From Ignavibacteriales bacterium (GTDB taxonomy: Bacteria > Bacteroidota > Ignavibacteria > Ignavibacteriales > Ignavibacteriaceae), in assembly GCA_020061995.1 (NCBI GenBank), contig JAGUXE010000072.1:1-18129 (forward strand): a DNA stretch of 18,129 nucleotides. The letters run 5' to 3'. This document shows, piece after piece, positions 1,488-18,129 of the stretch; the first letter of the stretch is position 1, and each line of letters begins with the position of its first letter. The notes under the pieces were generated by a model. It searched no databases. It saw only the letters and a program-made list of their open reading frames with translations, and had not been told where the DNA came from. Position numbers and translations under genes: made by a program.

Positions 1488-1544
1488 AATTTGATGGAAA
1501 TTTGTTGTTCGTTCAACCCCTACGGATTTCTTCATTCGTCACTT

Positions 1545-1596: not shown

Positions 1597-1682
1597 TTGT
1601 AATTTACTCTACGCTCTTCGCTCTAAGCTACTCACTACATACTTCATACTAAGTTTCTCCGATTCGTCGGATTACACACGCA

Positions 1683-1711
1683 CATCTCACATCGCATATC
1701 TCATATCCTCA
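1683..1711. repeat. Degenerate heptamer tandem repeat
   Basis: Four consecutive units read CATCTCA, CATCGCA, TATCTCA and TATCCTCA (the last with one inserted base). The upstream sequence is similar but less regular. Confidence 0.45.
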
Positions 1712-1722
1712 GAGAATTTCTT

Positions 1723-2060: not shown

Positions 2061-2063
2061 TGT

Positions 2064-4793: not shown

Positions 4794-5522
4794 TCACCCA
4801 TGCATAATCTTAAAATCAAACAAGTCATTCACTCCAAAAGGGTTAACGGAATATAACGGGTCTCCGTATTTAACACCAATCATTTGTCCGTAAAATTTTG
4901 CGCGAGTATCGATAAACTCCCAAAATGATTTTTTACTCAAAAGCGTTTCAGGGTCTTTTGATTGCGGATTGTAAAATTGCGATTTATAAGCACGAACTGC
5001 ATTTTGCCGTATGTTGTAAACATCTGTTATATCTACAATGAATGACGGTATGAATTCATACCTCATCATGTAATTAAAATAATAATGCGGTCTCCAAGGG
5101 AGTTGCTTTTTGCCGTCGATTTCAGTCTTGATGTTTGCCAATCCTGAATAAAACCATGCTTGATGAGATAGCTGATTAGCGTGGACGTGATCAGGATGTC
5201 GGTCATGCCAATGAGGAAATAGAAGTATTTTTGGTCTGTACTTTCTTAAAATTCGTATTAGTTTGATTTTATTCTCTTGATTTATTTCGATATTCCCGTC
5301 AAGTAAATGAAGATTTTCTCGCGTATGTATGCCCAAAATTTTGGAAGCAAGTTTTGCTTCTTTCGCTCGAATAGATTTCGATCCGCGAGTACCTAATTCA
5401 CCTTCTGTTAGATCAAGTATGCCAACTCTATATTTGAGCTGAACTAACTTTGCTATAGTGCCCGCACAGCCAAGCTCAACATCGTCAGGGTGTGCGCCGA
5501 TTCCTAATACATCTAATTGCAT
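4794..5522 (-). CDS. bshB1: Bacillithiol biosynthesis deacetylase BshB1 (PIG-L/LmbE family)
   Basis: A 242-residue PIG-L-type zinc deacetylase. AHPDD at residues 10-14 and HPDHVHAN at 108-115 supply the Zn ligands and catalytic Asp. LTEGELGTRGS (38-48), and near the C-terminus AYKSQFYNP followed by IGVKYGDPLYS and GVNDLF, are the features I associate with BshB1 rather than other LmbE proteins. BshB1 removes the acetyl group from GlcNAc-malate, the second step of bacillithiol synthesis, the low-molecular-weight thiol of many Firmicutes, Bacteroidetes and Deinococci. BshA and BshC are not in this window. GGAG (5528-5531 on the complement) precedes the ATG by 5 bases. It diverges from xseA. Confidence 0.88.
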   Translation of the reverse strand: MQLDVLGIGAHPDDVELGCAGTIAKLVQLKYRVGILDLTEGELGTRGSKSIRAKEAKLASKILGIHTRENLHLLDGNIEINQENKIKLIRILRKYRPKILLFPHWHDRHPDHVHANQLSHQAWFYSGLANIKTEIDGKKQLPWRPHYYFNYMMRYEFIPSFIVDITDVYNIRQNAVRAYKSQFYNPQSKDPETLLSKKSFWEFIDTRAKFYGQMIGVKYGDPLYSVNPFGVNDLFDFKIMHG

Positions 5523-5594
5523 TATGTCTCCATTAAATTTGTGTTAATATACTAAATTAAATAAAAATTAAAAAGGAAAAATTAAAAAGAGAAG

Positions 5595-5625
5595 TTGTTT
5601 ATAAGTCGGTGTTTCGATATATTTG
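5595..5625 (+). promoter_or_regulatory. Predicted Bacteroidetes-type promoter for xseA-xseB-dxs
   Basis: TTG at 5595-5597, a 20-base spacer, then TATATTTG at 5618-5625: an exact match to the Bacteroidetes housekeeping consensus TTG-N19-21-TAnnTTTG. The inferred transcription start would lie near 5632, giving a leader of about 17 bases before the xseA start codon. Confidence 0.65.
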
Positions 5626-5648
5626 TTTAGAGATTAGAAAGAAAATAG

Positions 5649-6857
5649 TTGCCGAACGGAAAAATATTATCGGTTTCAGAAATAACACGTCAAATCAAAA
5701 GTGTCTTAGAAACCAATTTCAACGACATCATCGTACAGGGTGAGATTTCAAATTTTAAACGGCATTCATCCGGGCATCTGTATTTTACTTTAAAGGATGA
5801 GAATGCTTCTTTAAGCGCAGTTATGTGGCGCGGCAGAGCGGCCCATCTTTTTTTCACTCCGCAAGACGGTATGAAAGTTTTGGCTTGCGGCTCTATATCT
5901 GTTTACGAAGTTCGTGGTTCCTATCAGATTGACGTTATCAGTTTACAGCCGCTCGGAATCGGAGAATTGCAAGTCGCTTTCGAAAAACTTAAACAAAAAC
6001 TTGCAGCCGAAGGGCTTTTCAACGAATCACATAAGAAACCTTTACCAGAATATCCGGAACGAATTGGGATTGTAACTTCACCAACAGGCGCGGCTATTCA
6101 GGATATGCTTAATATTATATCAAGGCGATTTCCAGGGGTCGAGATATTTTTATATCCCGTAAAAGTTCAGGGCGTAGGTGCTGCGGAAGAAATAGCTAAT
6201 GCGATTTGCGACTTTAATGAATACAAAAAATTCGATTCTCGAAAATTCGGTGTGGATGTGTTGATAGTCGGTAGGGGAGGCGGTTCAATAGAAGATTTGT
6301 GGGCATTCAACGAAGAGATAGTTGCACGTGCGATTTATGCTTCCGTAATTCCAATAGTAAATGCAGTCGGACACGAGATAGATTTTACGATAGCAGATTT
6401 CGTTGCCGATTTTCGTGCGCCAACACCATCGGCAGCCGCAGAACTTGTTGTGCCGAATCGCTTCGAATTAATTGAAAATATTAGGAATTTTCACTATACT
6501 ATAAAAAGAAATTTGGAAGAAAGAGTTGTTGACGGAAGAGAGCTGATTGATAATATACTTTCAAGTTACGCATTCAACTCGCCGAAAGGTAGAATGCGGC
6601 AATACTCGCAGCGTCTCGACGAATTTGATAGATTAATAAGGATAAAGATCGCACATAAATTGTTGTTAGTGAAACAAAATTTAAAACAGGTAACCCATCG
6701 CATCGAATCATTAGACTCAGGATTAATGCTGAAACGTGGTTATGCTATTGTTTACAAAGATTCCCGGCTCATCGATTCTGCTTTGAATATAAAGCACGGT
6801 GATGATATTGGAATAAAATTTAAAGACGGCACAGTCGATGCGACTGTGAAGGAATGA
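5649..6857 (+). CDS. xseA: Exodeoxyribonuclease VII large subunit
   Basis: XseA is the catalytic subunit of exonuclease VII, which degrades single-stranded DNA in both directions with XseB. The chain opens with LSVSEITRQIKSVLE and IIVQGEISNFKRHSSGHLYF (OB-fold nucleic-acid-binding domain). It continues with ERIGIVTSPTGAAIQDMLN, VLIVGRGGGSIEDLWAFN and VNAVGHEIDFTIADFVADFR, then PTPSAAAELVVP, all classic XseA blocks, and a C-terminal coiled region ending MLKRGYAIVY. Length (402) is normal. The start is TTG at 5649; an in-frame TAG lies immediately before it, so no longer form is possible and the N-terminus fits homologues. The stop overlaps a possible xseB ATG (ATGA). Confidence 0.95.
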   Translation: MPNGKILSVSEITRQIKSVLETNFNDIIVQGEISNFKRHSSGHLYFTLKDENASLSAVMWRGRAAHLFFTPQDGMKVLACGSISVYEVRGSYQIDVISLQPLGIGELQVAFEKLKQKLAAEGLFNESHKKPLPEYPERIGIVTSPTGAAIQDMLNIISRRFPGVEIFLYPVKVQGVGAAEEIANAICDFNEYKKFDSRKFGVDVLIVGRGGGSIEDLWAFNEEIVARAIYASVIPIVNAVGHEIDFTIADFVADFRAPTPSAAAELVVPNRFELIENIRNFHYTIKRNLEERVVDGRELIDNILSSYAFNSPKGRMRQYSQRLDEFDRLIRIKIAHKLLLVKQNLKQVTHRIESLDSGLMLKRGYAIVYKDSRLIDSALNIKHGDDIGIKFKDGTVDATVKE

Positions 6858-6859
6858 TT

Positions 6860-7111
6860 ATGGTAAAAAAAAGTGTTGAAAAAAAAGAATCGGTTCAAAC
6901 GTTTGAGCAATCTTTCAAGAGGTTGGAAAAAATTGTTGACATTCTTGAGAGAGGAGAAGTCTCGCTCGAAGAATCCATTAAAATGTATGAAGAAGGGATT
7001 GAGCTTTCTAAAGTTTGTTTAGACAAGCTGACAGAAGCTGAATTGAAAATTAAAAAGCTCAGTAAGGATGTAAACGGAAAGCTTGCATTGACTGAAGAAG
7101 ATGAAGAATAA
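6860..7111 (+). CDS. xseB: Exodeoxyribonuclease VII small subunit
   Basis: A short, highly charged helical protein with the XseB core FEQSFKRLEKIVDILERGEV, SLEESIKMYEEGIEL and CLDKLTEAELKI. It binds the long XseA helices and is needed for exonuclease VII activity. Two in-frame ATGs exist: 6854, overlapping the xseA stop, and 6860. AAGGA at 6849-6853 touches the first but stands 6 bases before the second, so 6860 is preferred (83 residues); the other choice adds only Met-Ile. It lies between xseA and dxs with no gap. Confidence 0.93.
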   Translation: MVKKSVEKKESVQTFEQSFKRLEKIVDILERGEVSLEESIKMYEEGIELSKVCLDKLTEAELKIKKLSKDVNGKLALTEEDEE

Positions 7112-9013
7112 ATGACAATCGGACAATATCAGATTTTAAGTAAGATAGATTCACCTGCCGACTTAAAAGAGTTAAACATAAACGAACTAAAACAATTATC
7201 GGAAGAGATAAGAGAATTTTTAGTAGATGCCATCTCGAAAACCGGTGGGCATTTAAGCGCCAGCCTCGGAACGGTCGAACTAACACTCGCGCTCCATTAT
7301 GTATTTGACACTCCCACTGATAAACTTGTATGGGATATTGGGCATCAGGCATACGTTCATAAAATTATAACAGGAAGACGCGATGCTTTTAACACACTCA
7401 GACAACTCGGCGGAATAAGTGGCTTTTTAAGACGTTCAGAAAGCGAGTACGACACATTTGGTGCCGGACACGCAAGCACTTCGATCTCTGCTGCAATTGG
7501 TATAGCTACGGCAAGAGACCTTGCTGATGAAAAATATAGAGTTGTCGCAATAGTCGGCGATGGTTCGATGACTGGAGGTATGGCTTTTGAAGCGATGAAT
7601 AACACAGGCCTATTGAAAAAAAATATGATTGTTGTTTTAAACGACAATGCAATGTCAATCTCGCCGAACGTTTCTGCAATCTCAAATTATTTTACAGAAT
7701 TGATCGCAAGACCGGAATATAACAAATTAAAAGCGAGCGTGTGGAACTTAACAGGTAAGATGGATGCTTTTGGTGATCGATTAAGAAAATTAGCAGTTCG
7801 TGTTGAGGAAGGTATTAAAGTTGTTTTTACACCAGGAATGCTGTTTGAAGCTTTTGGATTCCGTTACTTCGGTCCGCTTAACGGACACAACATACAGAAG
7901 CTCGTGAAGATAATGAACGAGATAAAAGATTTACCGGGTCCGATTCTGCTGCACATTGTAACACAAAAAGGTAGGGGGTACAAGCCTGCCGAAGAAAATT
8001 CTCAGAAGCTGCACGGAGTGTCAGCGTTCGATAAAACCACAGGCATTTCTCCAAAGAAAGAGAATCTGCCCCCAACTTACACAGAAGTTGCCGGCAAAAC
8101 GATAGTTGAACTTGCTAAACAAAATTCAAAACTAGTCGGCATTACAGCCGCTATGGCTGATGGGACGGGCTTGGATTTTCTCCAAAAAGAATTACCCGAA
8201 AGATTCTTCGACGTAGGAATTGCAGAACAACACGCAGTAACTTTTGGTGCCGGACTTGCAACACAAGGCTTTATTCCTTTTGTTGCAATCTATTCAACGT
8301 TTTTGCAACGCGCGTTCGACCAAGTGGTACACGACGTCGCTTTGCAGAATCTGCATGTTATATTCGCAATCGACCGGGGCGGTATAGTGGGTGCGGATGG
8401 ACCAACGCATCACGGGATCTTTGATTTAGCGTACTTAAGAATAATTCCCGGTCTTGTTGTGATGGTTCCTAAAGATGAAAAAGAATTGCGCGATATGTTT
8501 TATACAGCAACAAAATATACAAAGGGACCGATAGCGATTCGTTATCCGCGCGGTATAGGACTCGGAGTTGAAATGCCGGAAAAAATGTATGAAATTCCGA
8601 TAGGAAAAGCAGAAATTTTAACAACAGGCAAAGATGTAGCAATCTTAACAGTTGGCAGTATGGTGACCCACTCATTACAGGCAGCAGAGATTCTGTCGGA
8701 ACAAGGTATTGATTGCGAGATAGTTAATATGCGTTTTGTAAAACCGCTTGACGAACAATTATTATTCAATCTCTTTAAACGATTCAACAGGATTATAACA
8801 GTCGAAGAAGGATGTATAAAAGGCGGCTTTGGTTCGGCAGTATTAGAGTTTATTTCTCAAAATAATATTAACAATCTTTCAGTAATGAACCTCGGTATCG
8901 ACGACAGTTTCGTTACTCAGGGATCACCTCAACAACTTTATGAGTTATTAAAACTCGACCCAAAAGGGATTGCAGAAAGCGTTCTTAATTTTATTAAAAG
9001 AAAAAGTGAATAA
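7112..9013 (+). CDS. dxs: 1-deoxy-D-xylulose-5-phosphate synthase
   Basis: Dxs condenses pyruvate with glyceraldehyde-3-phosphate using thiamine diphosphate, the first step of the MEP isoprenoid pathway; DXP also feeds thiamine and pyridoxal synthesis. The 633-residue chain begins LSKIDSPADLKELNINELKQ and has GGHLSASLGTVELTLALHYV (45-64). The TPP/Mg motif GDGSMTGG is at 149-156 with the partner NDNAMSIS. The second half shows DVGIAEQHAVTFGAGLA with the catalytic Glu, IDRGGIVGADGPTHHGIFDL and IRYPRG. All are typical and intact. The ATG follows the xseB stop directly, so translation is coupled. The xseAB-dxs linkage is common in bacteria. Confidence 0.97.
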   Translation: MTIGQYQILSKIDSPADLKELNINELKQLSEEIREFLVDAISKTGGHLSASLGTVELTLALHYVFDTPTDKLVWDIGHQAYVHKIITGRRDAFNTLRQLGGISGFLRRSESEYDTFGAGHASTSISAAIGIATARDLADEKYRVVAIVGDGSMTGGMAFEAMNNTGLLKKNMIVVLNDNAMSISPNVSAISNYFTELIARPEYNKLKASVWNLTGKMDAFGDRLRKLAVRVEEGIKVVFTPGMLFEAFGFRYFGPLNGHNIQKLVKIMNEIKDLPGPILLHIVTQKGRGYKPAEENSQKLHGVSAFDKTTGISPKKENLPPTYTEVAGKTIVELAKQNSKLVGITAAMADGTGLDFLQKELPERFFDVGIAEQHAVTFGAGLATQGFIPFVAIYSTFLQRAFDQVVHDVALQNLHVIFAIDRGGIVGADGPTHHGIFDLAYLRIIPGLVVMVPKDEKELRDMFYTATKYTKGPIAIRYPRGIGLGVEMPEKMYEIPIGKAEILTTGKDVAILTVGSMVTHSLQAAEILSEQGIDCEIVNMRFVKPLDEQLLFNLFKRFNRIITVEEGCIKGGFGSAVLEFISQNNINNLSVMNLGIDDSFVTQGSPQQLYELLKLDPKGIAESVLNFIKRKSE

Positions 9014-9035
9014 ATCAACATTCTAAAATATTCTT

Positions 9036-10040
9036 ATGGATAAATTAAAGATTGGCGTTGTCGGATTAGGATGGGTTGCTCAAGTGTACCATCTTCCAGT
9101 ACTCAAAAAGATGAGTGACTTAGAGATTGTAGCGATTTGCGATCATGACAAAGGAAAGGCGAAATCCGTCGGTGAAAAATTCGGGGTCTCGAAAATATAT
9201 ACGGATTATGAAGAGATGCTGATAAGCACCGAATTAAATGCTGTGGATATTTGTACGCCTACAGATTTGCATAAAAGTATGTCTATTGCTGCGCTTCAAG
9301 CTGGCTTAGATGTATTCGTTGAAAGACCTATCGCGCGTTCATACCAAGAAGCTTGCGATATATCCGAAGCAGTTACTAAAAACAAGCGCAAATTTATGGT
9401 TGGTATGAACAACCGTTTTAGACCAGATATGATGTTACTGAAAAGTATAATCGAGAACGGAGAAATCGGAAATATTTTCTACGCAAAAGCAGGATGGATT
9501 AAAAAGCTGTCGAGCAATAATCCTTGGATTACGCAAAAGGAAAAATCCGGAGGTGGTGTGTTCTTGGATTTAGGACTTACCGTATTAGATACATTGTTAT
9601 GGTCGTTCAATTTCCCACCTGTTAAACGCGTTAGCGCTGTAACTTATCACCACACAACGAAAAGTGTTGAAGATTCTGGTATAGCTTTTTTCGAAACTCT
9701 AAACGGAGCGACTATGACGCTTGAAGCAAGTTGGTCTTTTCATGCAGCGGCAGATAGTTTCTATTGTGATATTTTCGGATCCAAGGGCAGCGTGCAATTA
9801 AGTCCGTTGCGGATTAATAAATTTATGGGAGAGAATTTTGTGAGTGTTACTCCTACAAAGATGGACACTCAGCAAAACCTGATGAAAAGAAGTTACGAGA
9901 ACGAACTAAGACACTTCATAAATGCTGCAAGAGGATTGCATCTCGTTACTTCTACCGCGCAAGAAGCAGTTCAACGAATGAAAGTAGTCGAAGCTGTTTA
10001 CAAATCGGCAAAAATCCAAAAAGAAGTTTTGCTAAAATAA
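9036..10040 (+). CDS. Gfo/Idh/MocA-family oxidoreductase-like protein with altered catalytic residues
   Basis: The 334-residue protein has the N-terminal Rossmann fold GVVGLGWVAQVYHLPVL (8-23), then VDICTPTDLHKSMSIAALQA (70-89) and a C-terminal alpha/beta domain, the layout of NAD(P)-dependent sugar or inositol dehydrogenases. Two residues usually needed for catalysis differ. The Lys of the EKP motif is Arg (VERP, R97), and the His of the G.H..D motif is Thr (LDLGLTVLD, T182), though the Asp (D185) stays. It may be a non-oxidoreductase member, a sensor-like protein, or use another chemistry; the substrate is unknown. It starts 22 bases after dxs on the same strand, so it is likely in the operon. 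Nothing in the context fixes its pathway. Confidence 0.8.
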   Translation: MDKLKIGVVGLGWVAQVYHLPVLKKMSDLEIVAICDHDKGKAKSVGEKFGVSKIYTDYEEMLISTELNAVDICTPTDLHKSMSIAALQAGLDVFVERPIARSYQEACDISEAVTKNKRKFMVGMNNRFRPDMMLLKSIIENGEIGNIFYAKAGWIKKLSSNNPWITQKEKSGGGVFLDLGLTVLDTLLWSFNFPPVKRVSAVTYHHTTKSVEDSGIAFFETLNGATMTLEASWSFHAAADSFYCDIFGSKGSVQLSPLRINKFMGENFVSVTPTKMDTQQNLMKRSYENELRHFINAARGLHLVTSTAQEAVQRMKVVEAVYKSAKIQKEVLLK

Positions 10041-10056
10041 AATCAGCTCTACTAAG

Positions 10057-10354
10057 ATGGGAAAAACTATAGCATTACTGACTGACTTCGGTTTGCGCGA
10101 CGGTAACGTTGCTGCAATGAAAGGTGTAATATACTCTATCGATCCTGAGATAAGAATAGTTGACCCCGGTGTGGGGAGTAAACGAGATATTTTATGTGTC
10201 GAAACAGATGACTACTACTTTTTAGCGCCAGATAACGGTTTGCTGAAATTTATTTTGGGGAATGAAAAAATCAATACGTAACGGTGATGCCGCCCCCAAA
10301 TTGAAAGTAAAAGTTGGCTCACCTGTAAAACTTGTGAGTTATGAAAAAAAATAA
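10057..10354 (+). pseudogene. Collapsed SAM hydroxide adenosyltransferase (DUF62) pseudogene
   Basis: The frame starts normally for the DUF62 family (SAM hydrolase/fluorinase relatives): IALLTDFGLRDGNVAAMKGV, then IYSIDPEIRIVD. It then jumps straight to DPGVGSKRD, YYFLAPDNGLL. The stretch that normally lies between (about 35-40 residues around the ITH-P motif) is gone, the join falling on the repeated VD. The frame stops at 10281 after 74 residues. In another frame, just downstream, NGDAAPKLKVKVGSPVKLVS and YEKK end at 10354, matching the family's C-terminal strand. Most of the C-terminal domain between is missing. Intact members are about 260 residues. Two deletions plus a frame change mean no function. 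The ribD start codon lies inside its last codons. Confidence 0.8.
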
Positions 10355-11447
10355 CTATGAACATATTGAATATATGCAAGAGTGTTTGTCGCTTGCGCAA
10401 AAAGGACTCGGCAGCGTAAGCCCAAACCCGATGGTCGGCGCAGTCGTAGTAAAGAACAGAAAAATTGTCGGTAGGGGATATCACAAAAAATTCGGGAAGG
10501 CGCACGCTGAAGTGAATGCGCTTGAACAGGCAGGCGATGAAGCCAAGGGATCTACTTTGTATGTAAATTTAGAACCGTGCAGCTTCTATGGAAAAACTCC
10601 ACCTTGCACTGATTTGATAATTTCCAAAGGGGTTAAAAGAGTTGTCGTTGCGATGCGTGACCCCAACCTGCAAGTTAACGGCAAAGGAATTTCGAAACTT
10701 AAAAAAGTGAAAATCGATGTGGTTGAAAATGTACTTTCTAAGGAAGCTGCGCAGTTGAACGAATCGTTTGTCAAATACATAACTAAGAAGTTGCCTTTTG
10801 TTACCGTCAAAATCGCCCAAACGTTGGATGGAAAAATCTCAGATTACCGCGGCGATTCCAAATGGATTACTAATCTCGAATCGCGAAAGGAAACTCATCG
10901 ATTGCGCGCTATGCACGATGCAATTCTCGTCGGCGCCAATACGATAAAAGCCGATAATCCTGAGCTTACAGTTCTCCTGGTAAAAGGTAAAAGTCCCATC
11001 CGAATTGTTATCGATGGTAAACTTTCGTCTCCAAACAACTCAAAAATATTTTTGACCGCAAAAACCGTTCGGACAATCGTTTTTGTAGCGGAATCAAGCT
11101 TTAAACGAAGTTGTAAAAAAGTTGAATCATTACAGGAATTAGGCGTCGAAATTTATCCCATCAAAACACAAAACAATCATATTCCGTTACTTCAGATCTT
11201 GAAATTGATCGCTAAACTTAATATCGCATCTGTTTTAATCGAAGGCGGTGCAAATATCTTCTCACAATTTATTCAGAATAAACTTGCCGATAAAGTTGTT
11301 ATATTTATTGCGCCGAAGATATTCGGAAACGGAAAAGATGTTGTCGTAATAAAAAATAATAGATCGCTTAAGAGCGCAATCTCTCTTACGAATGTATCTT
11401 ACCGTAAGCTCGGTGGTGATATGATGATAGAAGGATATCTAAAATAA
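10341..11447 (+). CDS. ribD: Bifunctional riboflavin deaminase/reductase RibD
   Basis: RibD carries out the second and third steps of riboflavin synthesis: deamination of the GTP-derived pyrimidine, then NADPH reduction of its ribosyl side chain. The N-terminal cytidine-deaminase-like domain has SPNPMVGAVVV (27-37), HAEVNAL with Zn ligand His and catalytic Glu (55-61), and PCSFYGKTPPC with the two Zn Cys (79-89). The C-terminal DHFR-like reductase has VKIAQTLDGKIS, GDSKWITN, ILVGANTIKADNPELTV and VLIEGGANIFSQFI. Length 368 is standard. The start ATG at 10341 lies inside the tail of the DUF62 relic. ribE follows after 13 bases. No FMN riboswitch is seen near it. Confidence 0.96.
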   Translation: MKKNNYEHIEYMQECLSLAQKGLGSVSPNPMVGAVVVKNRKIVGRGYHKKFGKAHAEVNALEQAGDEAKGSTLYVNLEPCSFYGKTPPCTDLIISKGVKRVVVAMRDPNLQVNGKGISKLKKVKIDVVENVLSKEAAQLNESFVKYITKKLPFVTVKIAQTLDGKISDYRGDSKWITNLESRKETHRLRAMHDAILVGANTIKADNPELTVLLVKGKSPIRIVIDGKLSSPNNSKIFLTAKTVRTIVFVAESSFKRSCKKVESLQELGVEIYPIKTQNNHIPLLQILKLIAKLNIASVLIEGGANIFSQFIQNKLADKVVIFIAPKIFGNGKDVVVIKNNRSLKSAISLTNVSYRKLGGDMMIEGYLK

Positions 11448-11460
11448 TAAAATCAAAAAA

Positions 11461-12108
11461 ATGTTTACAGGAATTATTACAGAAATAGGCAAAGTTGAAT
11501 CAATTCAACGCAAAGGTAAAGGCGTCGTCCTGCAAATCAACGCCCCGGCGAGTTTAAAAGAACTTAAGATTGACGATAGCGTTTCGATAAACGGAGCTTG
11601 CCAAACCGTTGTTGCTAAATCTAAGAACTCATTCGAAGTTGTTGCAGTCGAAGAAACATTGAAGAAGACCACACTCGGAAATCTTAAATCCGGCGAACAG
11701 GTGAATCTTGAATTAGCGATGAGACTGAGTGATCGACTGGGTGGGCACTTGGTATTAGGACACATCGATTGTGTAGGTAAGATAAAAACAATCGAACAAA
11801 GAACCGTTAGCTTGCTGCTCACGGTTGTATTCCCGAAAGAGTTTATGAAGTATGTAATTCCTGTTGGCTCTGTTGCGATCGATGGCGTGAGTTTGACCGT
11901 TGCGGATGTTGGGGAAAATAGTTTAAACGTTTCAATCATTCCACACACGATGGAGAATACAATATTCCGGAATAAGAAAATAAACGATATAGTAAATATA
12001 GAGTTCGATGTGCTGGGAAAATATGTTGAGACCACCCTAACTAAAACTCAAAAAGAAGACGGTAAAGAAAAACTGACGGTTAAGGAATTAAGATCGTTAG
12101 GTTATTAA
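11461..12108 (+). CDS. ribE: Riboflavin synthase (alpha chain)
   Basis: Converts two molecules of 6,7-dimethyl-8-ribityllumazine into riboflavin plus a pyrimidine that is recycled. The chain begins MFTGIITEIGKV, an essentially invariant N-terminus. It is an internal duplication of two lumazine-binding barrels: the first with SVSINGACQTVV, the second with GGHLVLGHIDCVGKI and GSVAIDGVSLTVADV. IIPHTMENTIF and FDVLGKYVE complete the second barrel. The 215 residues include a short C-terminal tail typical of the family. It is directly downstream of ribD; ribH and ribBA are not in the window. Confidence 0.96.
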   Translation: MFTGIITEIGKVESIQRKGKGVVLQINAPASLKELKIDDSVSINGACQTVVAKSKNSFEVVAVEETLKKTTLGNLKSGEQVNLELAMRLSDRLGGHLVLGHIDCVGKIKTIEQRTVSLLLTVVFPKEFMKYVIPVGSVAIDGVSLTVADVGENSLNVSIIPHTMENTIFRNKKINDIVNIEFDVLGKYVETTLTKTQKEDGKEKLTVKELRSLGY

Positions 12109-12110
12109 AA

Positions 12111-12815
12111 ATGGCAAGAAGAATTCACTACTTTGTTCGCGACGACGGAGTAAATATAATCTCTGATAAAGAGTGGGAAAAAATTCAAAAATTACAAAGG
12201 TGGTATAACTCGGAGTTTATATGGAGTGCCGGAAGGTTGGCTCTGAAAATGTATTCGATTTTCCCGAATTGGGAAAATAAAAACGTTGACAAAAAATTAT
12301 TCTGGGAAATAATTTCCAAGCGGCGAAATGAATTGTCGAAGTTAGAACTTTCCGAGAACAGGATCATCGAACAGTTGCAAGAAGAAGGTTTGATCATAGC
12401 AAAACGGGGAGGGTATCGAGATAATTGCATAGCAAGCGGATTTACAAAAGTTGCCGGAAATGAATTTAATGCATACCTTGTGTGTGAGTTTCTACTCAAG
12501 GTTTCTACGATTGCTCAAAAATGTTGCATCGAAGTTCATGATGAGGGAAAATTCATCAAATGTCAAACTGTATCGTTTAAGAATGGAGACGTAACGAGTG
12601 ACCAAAGAAAAATATTTTCAACAGTCAATCCTGAAAAGTATAATAATTTTCCGAGTTACCATACTTATGTACTTAATTATGCGGGATTAGATATTGACGA
12701 TAAAAATAAAATTTTGCACGATTGGAAATGGCTTGGGTTCGACGATAACTACGATTTCAACGGAGATGATTCATCGGGTTATGATTTGAACAAAAAAATC
12801 AGGGGTTTCTCTTGA
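12111..12815 (+). CDS. Uncharacterised 234-residue protein downstream of ribE
   Basis: I do not recognise this family. It starts 2 bases after the ribE stop, so it is very likely translated from the same message. There is no signal peptide or membrane segment. The N-terminal half is helical and charged with many Trp and aromatic residues (EWEKIQKLQRWYN, FWEIISKRRNELSKLELSE). The middle has two adjacent Cys (QKCCIEVHD). The C-terminus is Asp-rich (LGFDDNYDFNGDDSSGYDLN), somewhat like an acidic metal-binding loop, although no canonical EF-hand spacing is present. Codon use looks like its neighbours. It could be lineage-specific; its link with riboflavin genes may be positional only. Confidence 0.7.
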   Translation: MARRIHYFVRDDGVNIISDKEWEKIQKLQRWYNSEFIWSAGRLALKMYSIFPNWENKNVDKKLFWEIISKRRNELSKLELSENRIIEQLQEEGLIIAKRGGYRDNCIASGFTKVAGNEFNAYLVCEFLLKVSTIAQKCCIEVHDEGKFIKCQTVSFKNGDVTSDQRKIFSTVNPEKYNNFPSYHTYVLNYAGLDIDDKNKILHDWKWLGFDDNYDFNGDDSSGYDLNKKIRGFS

Positions 12816-12842
12816 TATTAGATTAAAATTTTGTTATCTTTT
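12812..12842 (+). promoter_or_regulatory. Predicted promoter of secG/tRNA-Lys
   Basis: TTG (12812-12814), overlapping the previous stop codon, is followed after 20 bases by TATCTTTT (12835-12842). This fits TTG-N20-TAnnTTTG except for the last base. The secG start lies 28 bases further on and carries its own GGAG. Confidence 0.5.
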
Positions 12843-12870
12843 TTGAGTGTAAATTAGTAATGGAGATAAA

Positions 12871-13209
12871 ATGTTTTGGTTTTTAATTGGAATTGAAATA
12901 ATAATAGCAATTTTAATCATTATTGCTGTACTAATGCAATCGAGTAAAGGTGGCGGTTTAGCCGGCACATTCGGAGGCGGTCAGATGGGAACCATGTTCG
13001 GCGTACGCCGCACAGCCGACTTTTTGAGTAAATTTACAAGTATTTTAGCTGCTATATTCATTACATTAAGTTTGGTTATCAACATATTCTTTTTACCGAA
13101 TCGATCAACTCCAACTGAGAGTGTGATACAGCGAGGGACGAGCACAGTTCCACCCCCGATTCCTCCGCAGCAGCATCAAACACCAACCCCGACTCAGCCA
13201 GGTAACTGA
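12871..13209 (+). CDS. secG: Preprotein translocase subunit SecG
   Basis: SecG is the small inner-membrane partner of SecYE that aids SecA-driven protein export. The 112-residue chain has two hydrophobic segments (about 3-22 and 53-75). They are separated by the conserved cytoplasmic loop VLMQSSKGGGLAGTFGGG and FGVRRTADFLSK, typical of SecG. After the second segment there is a Pro/Gln/Thr-rich tail (PPPIPPQQHQTPTPTQPGN), common but poorly conserved. A clear GGAG (12862-12865) stands 5 bases before the ATG. tRNA-Lys starts 11 bases after the stop and may be transcribed together with it. Confidence 0.93.
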   Translation: MFWFLIGIEIIIAILIIIAVLMQSSKGGGLAGTFGGGQMGTMFGVRRTADFLSKFTSILAAIFITLSLVINIFFLPNRSTPTESVIQRGTSTVPPPIPPQQHQTPTPTQPGN

Positions 13210-13220
13210 TCTAAATTTTA

Positions 13221-13293
<73 letters not shown>

Positions 13294-13314
13294 CGAACAT
13301 TTTTAATTCTTTTC

Positions 13315-14118
13315 CTAAAATTTGAAACCCAATTTTGTCTTGAGTCCAATAATAAGATGATAGATTGAATAGCCAGAAAATTTGGTATTCTGAATTCCAC
13401 CAATTAAAGCAATATTATCTGAAACGTTATAATCAACCCGTAAATTTACAAGATATTTCTGAACCTCTTGTTGATTGAACAATACCAACAGGTCGTTATC
13501 AAAATAATATATCCTTTCACCTATTGTCCCTCCAACTTTAATTATAAATTTTGAAGTTGGAGCGAAATTAACCTTGCCTGCAATTGAATAATATTGTTGA
13601 TTTGCTGAAGTAAAAGTAAAGTTTGGTCTTAATGAGACATAAATCCGAGGGGAAACTATCCAGTCCAATCTCAGTGTAACTTGATTCCCAATTGTTTTTT
13701 GCTCATCATTAATTTTATGAAATGTATAAGCTGTGCCTAAATAGAAACGTTTTATGAAATAAAAGATTTCGGCTGAAAGTAAATTCGACGAATAATTATT
13801 TTCCAAAATATCCGAATCAATATGTGAATAATATAATTTGAAAAAATATGGGAACCGGTTGAGATATCCACCCGCTAGATAATTTTTCTGGGCTAATTTA
13901 AAATCAGGATATTTTAACGTTATATATTCGTAGGATCCGGTTATATAAAATCTATCCGTAATCTTTATGGAATTATAAAATGAAAATGCTGTTAACTTTC
14001 TGTCATCGGAATAATTCCCTTTTACAAAGTAGGCAGATGGATAAATTGTTAATGCATCTGCTTTAATATTGGCTTTGAAAATGATTATATTGTTTTGCCG
14101 ATATATAATCCCCCAAAT
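13315..14118 (-). CDS. Outer-membrane beta-barrel, C-terminal part of a TPR-barrel protein (frame-shifted from the TPR half)
   Basis: An open frame without its own good start: the first start-like codon is a TTG at 13806, but the frame is open and protein-like from 14118. It shows alternating hydrophobic/aromatic strands with short turns: ALTIYPSAYFVKGNYSDDRK, KLTAFSFYNSIKITDRFYIT, then TLRLDWIVSPRIYVSLRPNF. It ends LIIGLKTKLGFKF, a terminal Phe typical of BAM-inserted barrels. The missing N-terminus is supplied by the TPR protein in the frame just upstream. Joining them needs the loss of one base between 14063 and 14118. Together they would form a YaiO-like TPR plus barrel protein of about 410 residues. 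Whether the break is real or a sequencing error cannot be told here. Confidence 0.65.
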   Translation of the reverse strand: MWGIIYRQNNIIIFKANIKADALTIYPSAYFVKGNYSDDRKLTAFSFYNSIKITDRFYITGSYEYITLKYPDFKLAQKNYLAGGYLNRFPYFFKLYYSHIDSDILENNYSSNLLSAEIFYFIKRFYLGTAYTFHKINDEQKTIGNQVTLRLDWIVSPRIYVSLRPNFTFTSANQQYYSIAGKVNFAPTSKFIIKVGGTIGERIYYFDNDLLVLFNQQEVQKYLVNLRVDYNVSDNIALIGGIQNTKFSGYSIYHLIIGLKTKLGFKF

Positions 14119-14554
14119 TTAAAAATATCTGACCGAGCCGCAAGTTAGCGGTATAATTGTGGTAATCTAACTTTATAATTTCTTTGTAGGTGCTTTTAAC
14201 AGCATTCCATTCGTTCATTGCCGATAGGGGTAGAGTTAAACCTAAAAGCGCCTCGACACTTTTCCTATTGGTTATAGTTATGGCTTTATTATAATAGTCT
14301 TTAGATTCATTGAATTTTCCTATATTATAATAAAGCCAACCCAACCTTAAGTTTACGAGATAATCATTCTGATTATCCTTATAAATTCCCAATAATTTGT
14401 TGATTGCCTTTTGGTAATCGCCGGAAGTCTCCAGTTGAATTGATTCATTGAAAATTGTGATTTTTGGATCTGATTTTTGAGTTAAAACATCACTAGTGAA
14501 AATAGCTAATATGAGAGCTATGACGATTATGCTAAGTAATACATACTTATTCAT
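14063..14554 (-). CDS. TPR-repeat envelope protein, N-terminal part (frame-shifted from the barrel half)
   Basis: A 163-residue frame with an N-terminal hydrophobic signal or anchor (KYVLLSIIVIALILAIFTSD). Tetratricopeptide repeats follow: SGDYQKAINKLLGIYKDNQN, LRLGWLYYNIGKFNESKDYY and TANLRLGQIFLNLGDYISAK. The TPRs put it in the periplasm and suggest protein-protein contacts. The frame stops abruptly inside a repeat (KQYNHFQSQY) while the beta-barrel continues in the +1 frame, so the true product is probably larger. Its ATG overlaps the stop of the preceding gene by 8 bases (ATGAATAA), implying coupled translation. Confidence 0.75.
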   Translation of the reverse strand: MNKYVLLSIIVIALILAIFTSDVLTQKSDPKITIFNESIQLETSGDYQKAINKLLGIYKDNQNDYLVNLRLGWLYYNIGKFNESKDYYNKAITITNRKSVEALLGLTLPLSAMNEWNAVKSTYKEIIKLDYHNYTANLRLGQIFLNLGDYISAKQYNHFQSQY

Positions 14555-15104
14555 TTTGATTTTTCTTCTCTAATATATTGGTTGCTTTAAAATATACTTT
14601 ATTTCCTTTATAAAATTGAAACGTTTTAATATTGCTTGAACTATCAACAAAAATCTCACCGTTAAAAACATTTTTGTAAAACGAGAATAAACCTTTGCCT
14701 TCGACATTTATTTTACTGATAATCTGATATTCCTTTTCATCTGATTCATCATAATTAAAGGAAATATTTGCTTGAAGTGGATTCCCGAATAAAATGAAAA
14801 ATTCCGATAAGTAACGTATAAAGTTGTTCAGGAGAGCAGATATTACAAGATAGTCTTTCCAGAATAAATTTTTATGATAGCAAAGCGGAACTTGTTGTGA
14901 TACAAGATAAAAATAGTACAAGCCAGAGTTTTTATTACCGACAAAATTAATCAAATAAAATATTTTATCAGTTTTATCAAAATAAACTGTCGATCCGCGA
15001 TTTGATTCAATATACTGATAATTATTAGTATCAACTTTGACTTCCCACTCTTCAACAAAGGAACTACTTCCAAGCTTACATTCAAACTTATAAATGTCCC
15101 CCAA
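14547..15104 (-). CDS. C-terminal beta-rich domain continuing the M23 peptidase (frame-shifted)
   Basis: A 185-residue frame that stays open upstream to 15176, beyond its listed start, and reads naturally there (HSNFEIHKIISKAFDFKLGD). It has no signal peptide, no convincing start (a TTG) and no recognised domain. It is rich in Tyr/Phe and alternating residues, suggesting a beta-sandwich. Restoring one A in the A4 run at 15162-15165 joins it directly to the M23 peptidase as DYPEEKQFHSNFEIHK. I therefore read it as that protein's C-terminal domain rather than a separate gene. It overlaps the TPR gene start. Confidence 0.6.
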   Translation of the reverse strand: MGDIYKFECKLGSSSFVEEWEVKVDTNNYQYIESNRGSTVYFDKTDKIFYLINFVGNKNSGLYYFYLVSQQVPLCYHKNLFWKDYLVISALLNNFIRYLSEFFILFGNPLQANISFNYDESDEKEYQIISKINVEGKGLFSFYKNVFNGEIFVDSSSNIKTFQFYKGNKVYFKATNILEKKNQNE

Positions 15105-15787
15105 TTTAAAGTCGAATGCCTTACTAATGATTTTATGGATTTCAAAATTTGAATGGAACTGTTTTCTTCTGGATAGTCAAATATTTTTAAGATATATTGT
15201 TCGTCTTTCTTTTCTACAAAATGTTCAAACGGGTATTTTAAAGTTTTCGCACCCAATTTATCATTAATTTGAAATTGAAGATGCAGATGAGGATAGGGAG
15301 AGCGTCCGCTGTTCCCGCATAATGCAACAATGTCACCTTTCTTAACTTTATCTCCTTTTTTAACTTTTATTGAATCCGGCTCTATATGAGATAAAGAAGA
15401 GTAAAGATTCGGGCCATGTCCGATGATTATCGTGTTGCCCCAGTTTTTTTCTATATTTACTTCGCCAATTGGATTATTATGTATACCATCGATAACTTTA
15501 ACAACTTCTCCGTCTAATGGAGAGGCAAGGGGGAGTTTATAACAATAATAATCGCTTAAAGTGTTACCTTTGTCTGAAAATTGAGAGTTCGTACTATCCA
15601 ACACTACAAAATCGTATGCATATTGCCAATCACCCTTATGAGTTAATTTGCCGTTATGTCCTTGAATCACATTCCATTCTCCAAAAAAGGGGAGTTGAGG
15701 GGCAAGAGATTTAAATTTATCAAATCTAAATTTTCGGTTATTATGATAGTAATAATTTTCTTCAGGTGTACCCGGTTGAAAAAACAA
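14951..15787 (-). CDS. M23-family zinc peptidase domain (peptidoglycan endopeptidase type)
   Basis: M23 (LytM-type) enzymes cut peptide cross-links in peptidoglycan. Visible metal-site motifs are HKGDWQYAYDF (His50, Asp59), the lid region SLSHIEPDSIKVKKGDKVKK, and GRSPYPHLHLQF with the HLH motif (167-169). The strand pattern LASPLDGEVVKVIDG is typical. The listed start is a TTG inside a T6 run, with no upstream ribosome site. Residues before it in the same frame merge with the urea-transporter frame if one T is removed. After about residue 208 the frame is lost at an A4 run and the listed tail to 14951 is out of frame. The natural protein is therefore probably a transporter-M23 fusion with a further C-terminal domain. 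Confidence 0.8.
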   Translation of the reverse strand: MFFQPGTPEENYYYHNNRKFRFDKFKSLAPQLPFFGEWNVIQGHNGKLTHKGDWQYAYDFVVLDSTNSQFSDKGNTLSDYYCYKLPLASPLDGEVVKVIDGIHNNPIGEVNIEKNWGNTIIIGHGPNLYSSLSHIEPDSIKVKKGDKVKKGDIVALCGNSGRSPYPHLHLQFQINDKLGAKTLKYPFEHFVEKKDEQYILKIFDYPEENSSIQILKSIKSLVRHSTLNWGTFISLNVSLEVVPLLKSGKSKLILIIISILNQIADRQFILIKLIKYFI

Positions 15788-16610
15788 GAACAGGAAGCAA
15801 AAATCCAGAGAGCAATTTAATAAAGAATACTGTAAATATTACCACGATTAGAGTCGCAAGAGAAACCAAAAAGATACTTTTTCGAGAAGAAATAATTAAA
15901 CTTCCACCGAGGGCAAAAGCAGTTAATATCGAATTAAAACTTGTTAAAATTAAAACAGTTTCGTTTTGCTCGAACAAGACCAAATGTAAAAATAGATAAT
16001 TGAATAAAAATGCTATTATGCTGAGTAAAAATAAGATTCTAGAAAAGAAAAATATTGCAATAGCTAATATTAAACCGGAAATTACGCTTGATTGAAAAAG
16101 AATTAAAGAGATAGATTTTAGATATGTAATTGCCAAAGGGTGAAGGGATGATAAATACTCAAACCCGACAAATTCAAAATATTTATAATCAATAAAATCG
16201 TAATTACCTAAAAATATAAAAAATATATAAAGCGAAAAAACAAAAGGTAGGCTTAATCCGGGTAAATTGAACGCTGATGCTAAATAATGTTCAAGCGCCG
16301 CTGAGATAAAAAAGGTGATGATAATAAAAATTGGAATCACCAGAAGTAAAAAAGGACTAAGCTCAAAATAAAAAGATGCAGCTGCACCGAATAAAATACC
16401 GTTGAAGCCATAAAAGCCGCTTCGAGTTTTATTTTTATCAAATTTTAATATGAATGCCAGAAAATTAGAAATAACAACGCCAAGCAATGCCATTAAACCT
16501 AATTTTGGAATCACAAATGTTGCGACCGATGCGATAACACCAAACCATTTTCGGTTAGAAAAAAAGATTTGGCTATAGCTAAAAAATATTGAATCGAGAA
16601 ATAATGTCAT
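15762..16610 (-). CDS. Urea-transporter-family membrane protein (N-terminal half of a transporter-M23 fusion)
   Basis: A 282-residue, very hydrophobic protein with roughly eight to ten membrane spans. The blocks GLMALLGVVISNFLAFIL, SGFYGFNGILFGAAASFYF and the later FNLPGLSLPFVFSLYIFFIF fit the urea transporter (UT) family. In that family a Gly-Tyr-Asn-rich motif sits at the pore of each half. It starts 3 bases after the decarboxylase stop. The frame ends LLPVLVFSTGYT just past a T6 run, while the +1 frame carries on as FQPGTPEENYYY into the M23 peptidase. UT domains joined to M23 peptidases occur in Bacteroidetes as far as I recall, so one protein is likely. Urea itself need not be the substrate. 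Confidence 0.75.
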   Translation of the reverse strand: MTLFLDSIFFSYSQIFFSNRKWFGVIASVATFVIPKLGLMALLGVVISNFLAFILKFDKNKTRSGFYGFNGILFGAAASFYFELSPFLLLVIPIFIIITFFISAALEHYLASAFNLPGLSLPFVFSLYIFFIFLGNYDFIDYKYFEFVGFEYLSSLHPLAITYLKSISLILFQSSVISGLILAIAIFFFSRILFLLSIIAFLFNYLFLHLVLFEQNETVLILTSFNSILTAFALGGSLIISSRKSIFLVSLATLIVVIFTVFFIKLLSGFLLPVLVFSTGYT

Positions 16611-16613
16611 TCG

Positions 16614-17969
16614 TTACTTTAGTTTGAGTTGTTTAGGGATTAATTCTTGATTCAAGATATAGTCAATGGATTCTTTTTTTCTGATTAATTCAACGCTTTT
16701 ATCTTCCATTATCATCACGACATTGGGTCTCATCGTAATAAATTGCATCCATTGCGTCAAGTTGTATGCCCCCGCATAATGAACGACAAGTTTATCTCCC
16801 TTTTTTAGGGATGGAAGTATGATGCTTTCTCTTATGCAATCGATATTCATACAAAGTGGTCCGTATAATGTCGTATCTTCTGAGTGAATAGAGCTATCTT
16901 GAGCTATAGATATTTTGTGATTATACCAGAAGCTTGTGAACATTATATTAACACCTGCATCTATAATTACAGCACGTCTGCCGCTTGTCAGACGTTTATT
17001 AGCGACAACCGAAGTTATTAAGTACCCGGCATCGTCTATGAGCGCTCTACCGGTTTCTAAAATCAGCGTAGGAAGTTCTGCTTGGCTGAATGACAATTCA
17101 AATAAACCCGATGTGATGGCTTCGGCATATTGCTCAAGCGATGGAACTACCTGTTCAGCAGGCAGATACTGTCCGATAAGTGTATTGTTAGATGTAAAGC
17201 CGCCGCCAAGGTCTATATAATCTATATTTTTCCCGAATTCTGATTTAATACTTTTTGCCAGTTTTCCAAGATTAATAGCGGCCAATCTGTATGCTTCGGA
17301 ACTCATAATATAAGTACCAATGTGTGTATGAAGGCCGATCAGTTCTAAATTTTTATTTACGACAATTCTTTTAATCGCTTGCCATGCTTCTCCGTTTTCA
17401 TAATTAAATCCGAACCTATCCCATTTGGGGTAAATTCCAACATCCATGTTTATACGAATTGCTACCTGTGCCTTTAGTTTGTTTTTATCTGTCAGTTCGA
17501 TGATTTGATAAAGTTCATCAAAATGGTCGATATGGATTTTTGCTTTATCTTTTATTGCTTTTATTAAAGCAGTTTCACTTTTATCCGGACCATTATATAT
17601 AATATTTTCGCCTATAACACCGAGATTTTTAGCTTTATCATATTCGAATTCCGAAACAACCTCTGCCCATGAACCTTCCTGATGAAAAACAGAACATACT
17701 GCGTTCAAATAATTTGTTTTATAAGACCAAGCAAACTGAACTTTTGGGTAACGGTTCTTAAATATACGGTATGCATTTTTTTGATTCTGCCTTATTCTCT
17801 TTTCGGATAATACAAATAGGGGAGAGTCGAACTCTTCTATTAATGAATTGATACTAACCCCATCGATATCCAACATCGGAGCTGAGATGGTCTGCGTCCC
17901 GAATTTATTCATCAATCCCGACTGAAGTTTCGTAATAATAGGTCTTTCGTATCTTTTTCTTGATGTCAT
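16614..17969 (-). CDS. Fold-III PLP-dependent decarboxylase (diaminopimelate/ornithine decarboxylase-like) with leader-like N-terminus
   Basis: A 451-residue alanine-racemase-fold decarboxylase. FAWSYKTN contains the PLP Lys (K84). HTHIGT (214-219) stacks on the cofactor, IDLGGGF (252-258) binds phosphate, and ETGRALIDDAG (305-315) is the EPGR-type loop. GPLC (370-373) carries the catalytic Cys and AGAYN (399-403) the phosphate-binding Tyr, so the active site looks complete. The substrate could be meso-diaminopimelate, another amino acid or a peptide-bound residue; it resembles but is not clearly LysA. The first 30 residues, with RYERPIITKLQSG and then NKFG, precede the catalytic fold and are unusual. 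AGGAG lies 10 bases before the ATG. It starts 2 bases after the previous stop and 3 bases before the transporter gene. Confidence 0.85.
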   Translation of the reverse strand: MTSRKRYERPIITKLQSGLMNKFGTQTISAPMLDIDGVSINSLIEEFDSPLFVLSEKRIRQNQKNAYRIFKNRYPKVQFAWSYKTNYLNAVCSVFHQEGSWAEVVSEFEYDKAKNLGVIGENIIYNGPDKSETALIKAIKDKAKIHIDHFDELYQIIELTDKNKLKAQVAIRINMDVGIYPKWDRFGFNYENGEAWQAIKRIVVNKNLELIGLHTHIGTYIMSSEAYRLAAINLGKLAKSIKSEFGKNIDYIDLGGGFTSNNTLIGQYLPAEQVVPSLEQYAEAITSGLFELSFSQAELPTLILETGRALIDDAGYLITSVVANKRLTSGRRAVIIDAGVNIMFTSFWYNHKISIAQDSSIHSEDTTLYGPLCMNIDCIRESIILPSLKKGDKLVVHYAGAYNLTQWMQFITMRPNVVMIMEDKSVELIRKKESIDYILNQELIPKQLKLK

Positions 17970-17971
17970 AA

Positions 17972-18127
17972 TTATAATTCTCCTGAAACAGCAATTTTTT
18001 CAAATATTTTAACGTCTGTGATTAAATCCCAGGCGCTTCTTACAAAAATTTTACCAATCTCATAATTTTCATAAGTGGCAACATCTTTTGACGTTGCTAA
18101 TTCTATGAGGGAGTAGGGCATATTTTG
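17972..18127 (-). CDS. C-terminus of an unidentified protein, partial
   Basis: Only 51 codons are visible before the right edge. The tail reads LIELATSKDVATYENYEIGK, IFVRSAWDLITDVKIFEKIA and ends VSGEL. I do not recognise it. An ATP-grasp-type ligase is a guess based on what often accompanies such decarboxylases, not on a motif in these residues. It ends 2 bases before the decarboxylase start and carries that gene's AGGAG in its last codons. It is clearly part of the same operon. Confidence 0.6.
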   Translation of the reverse strand, partial: QNMPYSLIELATSKDVATYENYEIGKIFVRSAWDLITDVKIFEKIAVSGEL

Positions 18128-18129
18128 TC

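What the first reader, a model, noticed from the sequence alone, without database searches (positions are those of the whole stretch)
13315..18129. Compact operon linking a PLP decarboxylase, urea-transporter-M23 peptidase and TPR-barrel protein
Five consecutive minus-strand frames are spaced 2-3 bases apart or overlap, so they are made together. The mix is a DAP-decarboxylase-like enzyme, a UT-family membrane protein tied to a peptidoglycan peptidase, and a periplasmic TPR plus outer-membrane barrel. It spans cytoplasm, inner membrane, periplasm and outer membrane and is not a textbook pathway. One reading is an envelope or peptide-modification system; another is export or uptake of a decarboxylated amino-acid or peptide product.
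Basis: partly seen in the sequence, partly recalled or inferred. Interest (0 to 1): 0.72.

Follow-up and report, generated by a model that had tools for sequence, protein, structure and literature searches.

The report
Decaying copy of unnamed tagged-decarboxylase cassette
This is a broken copy of a widespread but apparently undescribed set of Bacteroidota genes, in which a small peptide-recognising protein seems to grip a leader-like tag on the front of a decarboxylase, pointing to an unknown biosynthetic pathway.

Summary
Relatives in Ignavibacteria and Bacteroidia carry one cassette: PqqD-type recognition protein (RRE), ATP-grasp ligase, PLP decarboxylase, a urea-transporter-fold::M23::C-terminal fusion, TPR protein, and usually an outer-membrane barrel (order complete from RRE to TPR in 90 of 106 loci). 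The partial gene at the window's right end is the ATP-grasp. In the window the fusion is broken by an ~80-nt loss plus a 1-nt shift, and ~200 nt joining the TPR and barrel genes are gone; the decarboxylase is intact. The nearest genome lacks the cassette. New observation: the decarboxylases carry an N-terminal tag, YERPxI...G..NKFG, matching the [Y/W]xxPx[LVIFA] leader motif bound by lasso-type RREs. The cassette RRE keeps the two residues known to hold that motif, and the one clade that changed the tag Tyr to Phe also lost the Tyr-binding Asp of its RRE (a single coincident switch). The RRE therefore most likely docks the decarboxylase. M23 is predicted cytosolic, against a peptidoglycan role. 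Substrate and product are unknown. No description was found in the papers searched.

The parts
17972..18127 (-). 3' end of the ATP-grasp ligase gene (contig ends inside it)
   Evidence: tblastn of 17 ATP-grasp relatives: their residues 294-344 (296-346 in L018) at 18127-17975, 39-59% identity; sequence shows TAA two bases before the decarboxylase ATG
16614..17969 (-). PLP-dependent decarboxylase, fold type III, intact 451 aa
   Evidence: PF02784/PF00278; 62-72% identical over full length to 17 relatives, 54% to the partial one of L011
17898..17951 (-). Leader-like N-terminal tag of the decarboxylase, Y7 to G24
   Evidence: in 118 distinct tags P10 118, K22 118, Y or F at 7 118, G24 117; lies before the LysA/FslC match, which starts at residue 32-38
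15783..16610 (-). UT-fold part of the broken fusion (residues 1-276 of the intact protein; last membrane helix lost)
   Evidence: PF03253 142.6 bits
15125..15793 (-). M23 part of the broken fusion (other frame), zinc-ligand residues kept
   Evidence: PF01551 50.3 bits; residues ~300-522 of relatives; ligand residues read
14562..15149 (-). C-terminal domain of the broken fusion (residues ~515-700), back in the frame of UT; 1-nt shift near 15150
   Evidence: no Pfam family
14087..14554 (-). TPR gene, first ~155 of ~211 residues; C-terminal end lost
   Evidence: PF13181/PF07719
13315..14091 (-). Outer-membrane barrel gene without start and signal peptide (open frame only)
   Evidence: 13 relatives match in frame -1 from their residue 8-43 onward, 21-36% identity; relative L008 modelled as a ~14-stranded barrel

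Best explanation
The window holds a degenerating copy of a conserved Bacteroidota biosynthetic cassette (PqqD-type RRE, ATP-grasp, tagged PLP decarboxylase, UT::M23::CTD, TPR, OmpG-like barrel). Shown: the gene order, the fusion, the tag, and the breaks in this copy. Supported by inference: the RRE binds the decarboxylase's own N-terminal tag the way lasso-type RREs bind a leader (Tyr/Phe plus Pro in the RRE groove) and, its gene overlapping that of the ATP-grasp, brings decarboxylase and ligase together. Inferred only: the ligase attaches an amino acid by its distal end to an acceptor, the decarboxylase removes the alpha-carboxyl group of that attached amino acid (as FslC and BtrK do on theirs), the membrane-anchored cytosolic M23 hydrolase releases or trims the product, and the UT-fold pore, TPR protein and barrel take it out (or bring something in). 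In this genome only the decarboxylase, and perhaps the ligase and RRE beyond the contig end, could still work.
For: Order PqqD-ATPgrasp-DC-UT-M23-CTD-TPR in 90 of 106 loci (three contigs are in the 106 twice). Of the other 16, eleven are cut by the end of a contig or stretch, and five (L047, L049, L092, L177, L192) really differ. PqqD-ATP-grasp spacing has median -4 nt in 103 pairs. Tag profiles hit 26 of 296 phylum genomes, 74 of 395 of one class, 28 of 341 of one order; samples share genomes. RRE: PF05402 48.4 bits against a cut-off of 23.4; nearest solved chain TbiB1, a lasso RRE. LppB N33 and D70 hold leader Pro and Tyr (PMC13381572 section 10); they correspond to N30 and D67 here through the alignment to 9x8z, same spacing of 37 (that 9x8z is LppB is inferred). 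100 distinct tag/RRE pairs: 96 are Y with D67, 4 are F with Y/Y/Y/H. In 58 further loci, 30 of them from genomes already counted plus L083 and L197 seen before, 47 of 47 Y-tags with an RRE found have D67 and 8 of 8 F-tags have Y. Decarboxylase residues K84, HxH, GGG, ExGR, C373, GxY invariant in 131 of 131 (rows with 30 or more gaps dropped). Closest solved decarboxylase is N-citrylornithine decarboxylase (8.6e-64); BtrK is at 5e-31.
Against: The Y-to-F and D-to-Y/H switch is one event on the tree (11 F tips, monophyletic), so the covariation counts once. N30 is S in 3 and unread in 2 of the 58 extra loci. In L051 (genome G017) no RRE gene lies before the ATP-grasp although the contig goes on; genomes G007 and G017 have an RRE match on another contig, so the RRE is not always in the cassette. 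L192 has RRE, ATP-grasp and decarboxylase but no UT::M23 within the 11 kb read, so the membrane part may be dispensable. No binding was measured or modelled as a complex. No substrate or product is shown. The UT pore differs from urea channels, and export rather than import is not shown.
Confidence: 0.55

Rival explanations
1. A true RiPP pathway: the RRE serves a separate, unseen precursor peptide; the decarboxylase modifies it, and its YxxP tag is a competitor, a regulator, or the remnant of a precursor fused to its enzyme.
For: Lasso-type RRE residues kept; YxxP leader motif; a peptidase fused to a membrane protein recalls peptidase-containing transporters of RiPP clusters (recalled).
Against: In the genome searches the tag profiles found frames of 447 aa or more except three (244, 168 and 139 aa; the 244-aa one, L163, is cut by the contig end, the other two were not read). 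No small ORF with the NKFG motif among the loci held. A 41-residue search of the protein database found nothing, a weak word-based test.
Confidence: 0.2
2. Small-molecule pathway with the tag used only for enzyme assembly: ATP-grasp and decarboxylase make a diamine or acyl-diamine (siderophore-like or polyamine-like), the RRE is only a clamp, and the barrel imports or exports the compound.
For: Best solved relative is a siderophore-pathway decarboxylase; the barrel model is nearest OmpG, a monomeric porin; the decarboxylase has C-M-N-I-D where the LysA structure 2p3e has C-E-T-G-D, sharing C-M with FslC.
Against: Does not explain the conserved K22, F23, G24 beyond the RRE-binding part of the tag, nor a cytosolic M23 hydrolase.
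Confidence: 0.35
3. Ordinary genes that happen to be neighbours: lysine/peptidoglycan supply (DAP decarboxylase), urea uptake and a wall peptidase.
For: General database names say so (names; Pfam).
Against: Fixed order across the phylum; decarboxylase scores 232.5 against the lysA cut-off 297.9 and UT 101.1 against the urea-transporter cut-off 274.6; UT second-half polar residues replaced in L008; M23 predicted cytosolic.
Confidence: 0.03
4. The breaks in the window are sequencing or assembly errors and the organism has an intact cassette.
For: No second assembly of this copy was found to compare: the 282-aa UT frame matched itself only in this contig. The 1-nt shift alone would be a common error.
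Against: Losses of about 80 and 200 nt are not typical read errors; the enzymes named among the ten frames scanned left of the tRNA (PurE, PurK, XseA, Dxs, MocA-type, RibD) each read in one frame; the nearest genome (94-97% identical over most of 5307-13124) and the four other genomes of its family lack the fusion; a relative with a 1.7-Mb genome carries only a piece of it.
Confidence: 0.2

Closest known systems
Discrete lasso/LPP-type RREs (TbiB1, TfuB1/FusB1, LppB, PbaB1)
   Same: PqqD fold family, N and D recognition residues at the same spacing, YxxPx[I/L/V] partner
   Different: The proposed partner is the N-terminus of a 450-aa enzyme, not a short precursor; the RRE gene sits beside ATP-grasp and decarboxylase genes
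N-citrylornithine decarboxylase FslC (7kh2) and BtrK (2j66, 7ru7)
   Same: Solved relatives (FslC the best); by their names and from recall they decarboxylate an amino acid whose far end is attached to something; FslC shares C-M in the motif
   Different: 245.1 bits against the FslC cut-off of 500; the tag lies outside the aligned part; their partner enzymes differ (recalled)
LysW carrier pathway (LysX ATP-grasp, LysJ PLP enzyme, LysK zinc peptidase; recalled)
   Same: Same trio of chemistries: ligate, PLP step, zinc-hydrolase release
   Different: LysW was not looked for; the carrier role of the tag is a guess; the PLP step is a decarboxylation; the hydrolase is M23 and membrane-bound
Urea transporter dvUT / SLC14 fold
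   Different: Glu and Thr of dvUT's second half align to Leu and Val in L008; fused to M23
PgaA/BcsC-like TPR plus barrel exporters (recalled)
   Same: TPR protein next to an outer-membrane barrel
   Different: Separate genes in Ignavibacteria; the barrel is small, about 14 strands, OmpG-like

Membership tests
YxxP-binding RRE (PF05402) | PqqD domain above curated cut-off | tested here: met
   48.4 bits against 23.4 for L008; the window's own RRE lies beyond the contig end
YxxP-binding RRE (PF05402) | Asn and Asp that hold leader Pro and Tyr | tested here: met
   N30 in 100 and D67 in 96 of 100 distinct pairs, the 4 without D67 having F tags; N30 is S in 3 and unread in 2 of 58 extra loci
RiPP pathway | Short precursor peptide encoded nearby | tested here: inconclusive
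   No short ORF with the tag found; a precursor of other sequence was not sought
RiPP pathway | Leader peptide bound by the RRE | not testable with these tools
   Only sequence match and one coincident switch
Diaminopimelate decarboxylase LysA (TIGR01048) | Score above curated cut-off | tested here: not met
   232.5 against 297.9
Diaminopimelate decarboxylase LysA (TIGR01048) | Glu after the active-site Cys (C-E-x-x-D) | tested here: not met
   C-M-[NQ]-I-D in 131 of 131; 2p3e has C-E-T-G-D; that this Glu defines LysA is recalled
N-citrylornithine decarboxylase FslC (NF041039) | Score above curated cut-off | tested here: not met
   245.1 against 500
XrtA-associated decarboxylase (TIGR03099) | Score above curated cut-off | tested here: not met
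   114.9 against 478.45
Urea transporter (TIGR03441) | Score above curated cut-off | tested here: not met
   101.1 (window), 111.8 (L008) against 274.6; PF03253 itself is met
Urea transporter (TIGR03441) | Polar pore residues in both halves | tested here: not met
   In L008, dvUT GEVMFQ aligns to SLIIFQ and ALTWPF to LLVLPF; which residues line the pore is recalled
Peptidoglycan M23 peptidase | M23 domain with zinc ligands | tested here: met
   PF01551; His, Asp and HxH invariant in 16 and in 12 sequences
Peptidoglycan M23 peptidase | Located outside the cytoplasm | tested here: not met
   K+R per loop residue 0.206 on the side of the C-terminus against 0.034 on the other, 16 sequences, loops assigned by hand from the model's helices; split M23 of L092 has no signal peptide by eye. 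A prediction, not a measurement
Lasso peptide cluster | Asn-synthetase-like cyclase and B2 protease beside the RRE | not tested
   None among the few neighbours scanned with Pfam; neighbours of most loci were not scanned

The most novel reading that the evidence does not exclude
The decarboxylase is its own carrier protein: the RRE presents the N-terminal tag to the ATP-grasp, which ligates an amino acid to the tag's invariant Lys22 (118 of 118 distinct tags); the decarboxylase domain acts on this tethered amino acid in cis or in trans; and the cytosolic, membrane-anchored M23 domain cuts the product loose beside a UT-fold pore. That would be a carrier-peptide biosynthesis built from a lasso-type recognition module, with a zinc peptidase coupled to a channel.
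Probability: 0.2. Interest if true: 0.88.

Novelty: new variant of a known kind. Interest (0 to 1): 0.68.

Why it matters
The cassette's tagged decarboxylase occurs in about 9% (26 of 296), 19% (74 of 395) and 8% (28 of 341) of three overlapping Bacteroidota genome samples, yet the names seen for the fusion are only 'urea transporter' and 'peptidase M23'. The likely use of a RiPP recognition element to hold an enzyme's own tag, instead of a precursor peptide, would widen what RREs are thought to do, and I found no described counterpart of a cytosolic M23 on a urea-transporter fold in the searches listed. It also suggests that naming these genes as lysine synthesis and urea uptake is wrong. The window shows the cassette being lost.

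Tried and rejected
Peptidoglycan role of M23: dropped after the topology results. Plain DAP decarboxylase and urea channel: fail curated cut-offs. Defence system: no PADLOC match for the six proteins of L086 at 1e-5. Stand-alone precursor with the tag: the 41-residue protein search was empty, and a scan for the NKFG motif in the loci held then found only long decarboxylase frames. RNA elements: only tRNA-Lys reached its cut-off. The window's own genome is not held. Literature: no paper joining these parts in the listings (no papers; 2; none; asked for the butirosin analogy; 4; 5; 40 papers, 8 listed). Of the papers opened I saw passages and section 10 of PMC13381572, and passages found by term of PMC12710340, PMC10352776 and PMC8939145; nothing there described the cassette. 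The library holds open-licence papers only. The C-terminal domain of the fusion was not folded alone, and the whole-protein comparison hardly tested it, so nothing is said about its fold. I first took PqqD to be missing from four outer relatives; a profile later found it in the stretches of two (L047, L049) and elsewhere in the genomes of the other two, so that contrast was dropped. The Y/D covariation was first counted over 100 pairs and then reduced to one event by the tree.
Full report
1. What is in the window. Pfam gives Orn_Arg_deC_N/Orn_DAP_Arg_deC, UT, Peptidase_M23 and TPR; the frames 14547-15104 and 13315-13806 have no family above its cut-off. A scan of public species genomes with the window's UT frame gave 18 loci, all metagenome-assembled genomes titled Ignavibacteria(e), Ignavibacteriales, Melioribacteraceae, Chlorobi(ota) or Bacteroidetes. 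All 18 carry decarboxylase and UT side by side; M23 follows in 17 (L007 ends inside UT).

2. The frames are wreckage. In the relatives UT, M23 and the unnamed frame are one protein of about 710 aa, while TPR (about 210 aa) and barrel (about 275 aa), where both are present, are two genes. Mapping the relatives' proteins onto the window puts fusion residues 1-276 at 16610-15783, about 300-522 from 15793/15787 in another frame, and about 515-700 from 15149 in the first frame again. DNA alignment shows gaps of 38 + 42 bases at the first junction and one base at the second. Between matching points of TPR and barrel there are 215 nt in L008 and 13 in the window. The lost piece of the fusion is the last membrane helix of UT with its linker. 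The enzymes named among ten frames scanned left of the tRNA (PurE, PurK, XseA, Dxs, a MocA-type oxidoreductase, RibD) each read in one frame. The nearest held genome G001 matches 5307-10164 at 94% and 10266-13124 at 97% but has no DNA match to the cassette and only generic M23 hits (best 4.2e-4), as have the four other genomes of its family. Genome G046 (1.7 Mb) keeps a piece of the fusion (residues about 224-440 of L008); of the cassette proteins of L002, L008 and L018 nothing else matched in its 16 kb. Loss of the cassette is therefore likely going on in this group. Assembly error cannot be excluded, because no second copy of this contig was found.

3. The intact cassette. Clustering neighbours in the 18 loci showed an 84-aa and a 347-aa gene before the decarboxylase in 15 and 17 loci; in L008 they are a PqqD domain and an ATP-grasp. 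Profiles of the decarboxylase N-terminus then found the family in 26 of 296 genomes of the phylum, 74 of 395 of one class and 28 of 341 of one order; the samples share genomes. In 106 loci read (three contigs twice), 90 have PqqD-ATPgrasp-DC-UT-M23-CTD-TPR in this order, some with further TPR or barrel hits. The 16 others: eleven are cut by the end of a contig or stretch (L007, L011, L013, L048, L051, L163, L167, L168, L169, L175, L178), although L051 also lacks the RRE on its uncut side; L047, L049, L092 and L177 lack a TPR hit (L049 also the C-terminal domain), and L192 lacks everything after the decarboxylase. Genomes G007 and G017, whose loci L048 and L051 show no RRE, have one on another contig. 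UT and M23 are in one frame in 100 loci, split in one, incomplete in five. A search with a profile of 12 fusions gave 3242 proteins at E <= 1e-20 among 7997 candidates scored; the 120 listed carry both Pfam domains, with names from Algoriphagus, Cyclobacterium, Cecembia, Balneolaceae, Rhodothermaceae, Tenuifilaceae and one Fidelibacterota.

4. The tag. Before the LysA-like domain the decarboxylases have a tag of the form K.YERPxIxK..xG..NKFG. Among 118 distinct tags (rows with a gap at position 7 dropped) Pro10 and Lys22 are invariant, position 7 is Tyr (108) or Phe (10), position 12 is I, L or V, and Gly24 is 117 of 118. Discrete lasso RREs recognise [Y/W]xxPx[L/V/I/F/A]; in LppB Asp70 bonds the Tyr and Asn33 holds the Pro kink (PMC13381572, passages and section 10). 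The profile of this RRE aligns to TbiB1 (9.3e-14), TfuB1 and two PqqD chains, 9x90 and 9x8z; the equivalents of N33 and D70 are N30 and D67 (that 9x8z is LppB and 9x90 PbaB1 is inferred from residues and spacing). D67 is kept with every Tyr tag (96 of 96 distinct pairs; 47 of 47 where an RRE was found, many of these the same genomes) and is Tyr or His with every Phe tag (4 of 4; 8 of 8, one of them already counted). On a tree of 122 decarboxylases built without the tag the Phe tags form one clade of 11: one change of the tag, two of the RRE residue, which differs from D only in that clade. So this is one coincident switch of two otherwise fixed residues, strengthened by the known contact, not a repeated pattern.

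5. The enzymes. The decarboxylase residues K84, HxH, GGG, ExGR, C373 and GxY are invariant in 131 of 131 (rows with 30 or more gaps dropped); the motif after the Cys is C-M-N/Q-I-D, not the C-E-T-G-D of a LysA structure. The best solved relative is N-citrylornithine decarboxylase, and BtrK, named as an acyl-carrier-bound glutamyl decarboxylase, is also found. These act on an amino acid tied up at its far end (recalled), which fits an ATP-grasp partner. The window's decarboxylase keeps all of this.

7. Reading. Order, fusion, tag and breaks are shown. Docking of the decarboxylase by the RRE is likely. Substrate, site of ligation, the job of M23 and direction of transport are guesses. The boldest form, a self-carrying decarboxylase loaded on Lys22, is not excluded. 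The window's copy can at most still run the soluble first half of the pathway.

Noticed in passing
window 13221-13294 (+); L024: tRNA-Lys(CTT) ends about 20 bases from the barrel gene's stop; in the nearest genome a contig begins at this same tRNA and goes on with a GAF-type protein and a short-chain dehydrogenase (names from reading the sequences), so the region right of the tRNA differs between close relatives.
   Followed up: partly
L003-L010, L012, L013, L016 upstream of PqqD: A protein of one cluster (about 280 aa where complete) lies directly before PqqD in 11 of the 18 loci; that of L008 has FG-GAP and T9SS sorting-domain matches just above cut-off. A possible surface partner of this group.
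   Followed up: partly
L002:4215-5456, L008:11592-12677, L056:3229-4737, L057:9976-11085: A membrane acyltransferase (HGSNAT_cat / Acyl_transf_3 in L002 and L008; the others by similarity) beside the cassette.
   Followed up: no
L092:9944-12198: The only one of 106 loci with UT and M23 as two overlapping frames; useful for topology and function tests, unless it is a frameshift.
   Followed up: partly
L192 (genome G364): RRE, ATP-grasp and tagged decarboxylase with no UT::M23 in the 11 kb read: a possible minimal form.
   Followed up: no
L050:7966-8628 (genome G046): Solitary relic of the fusion in a 1.7-Mb genome.
   Followed up: yes
window 1420-2958: About 1.5 kb without a frame over ~110 aa, 1774-2089 matching G001 at 75%; either intergenic or decayed genes.
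   Followed up: no
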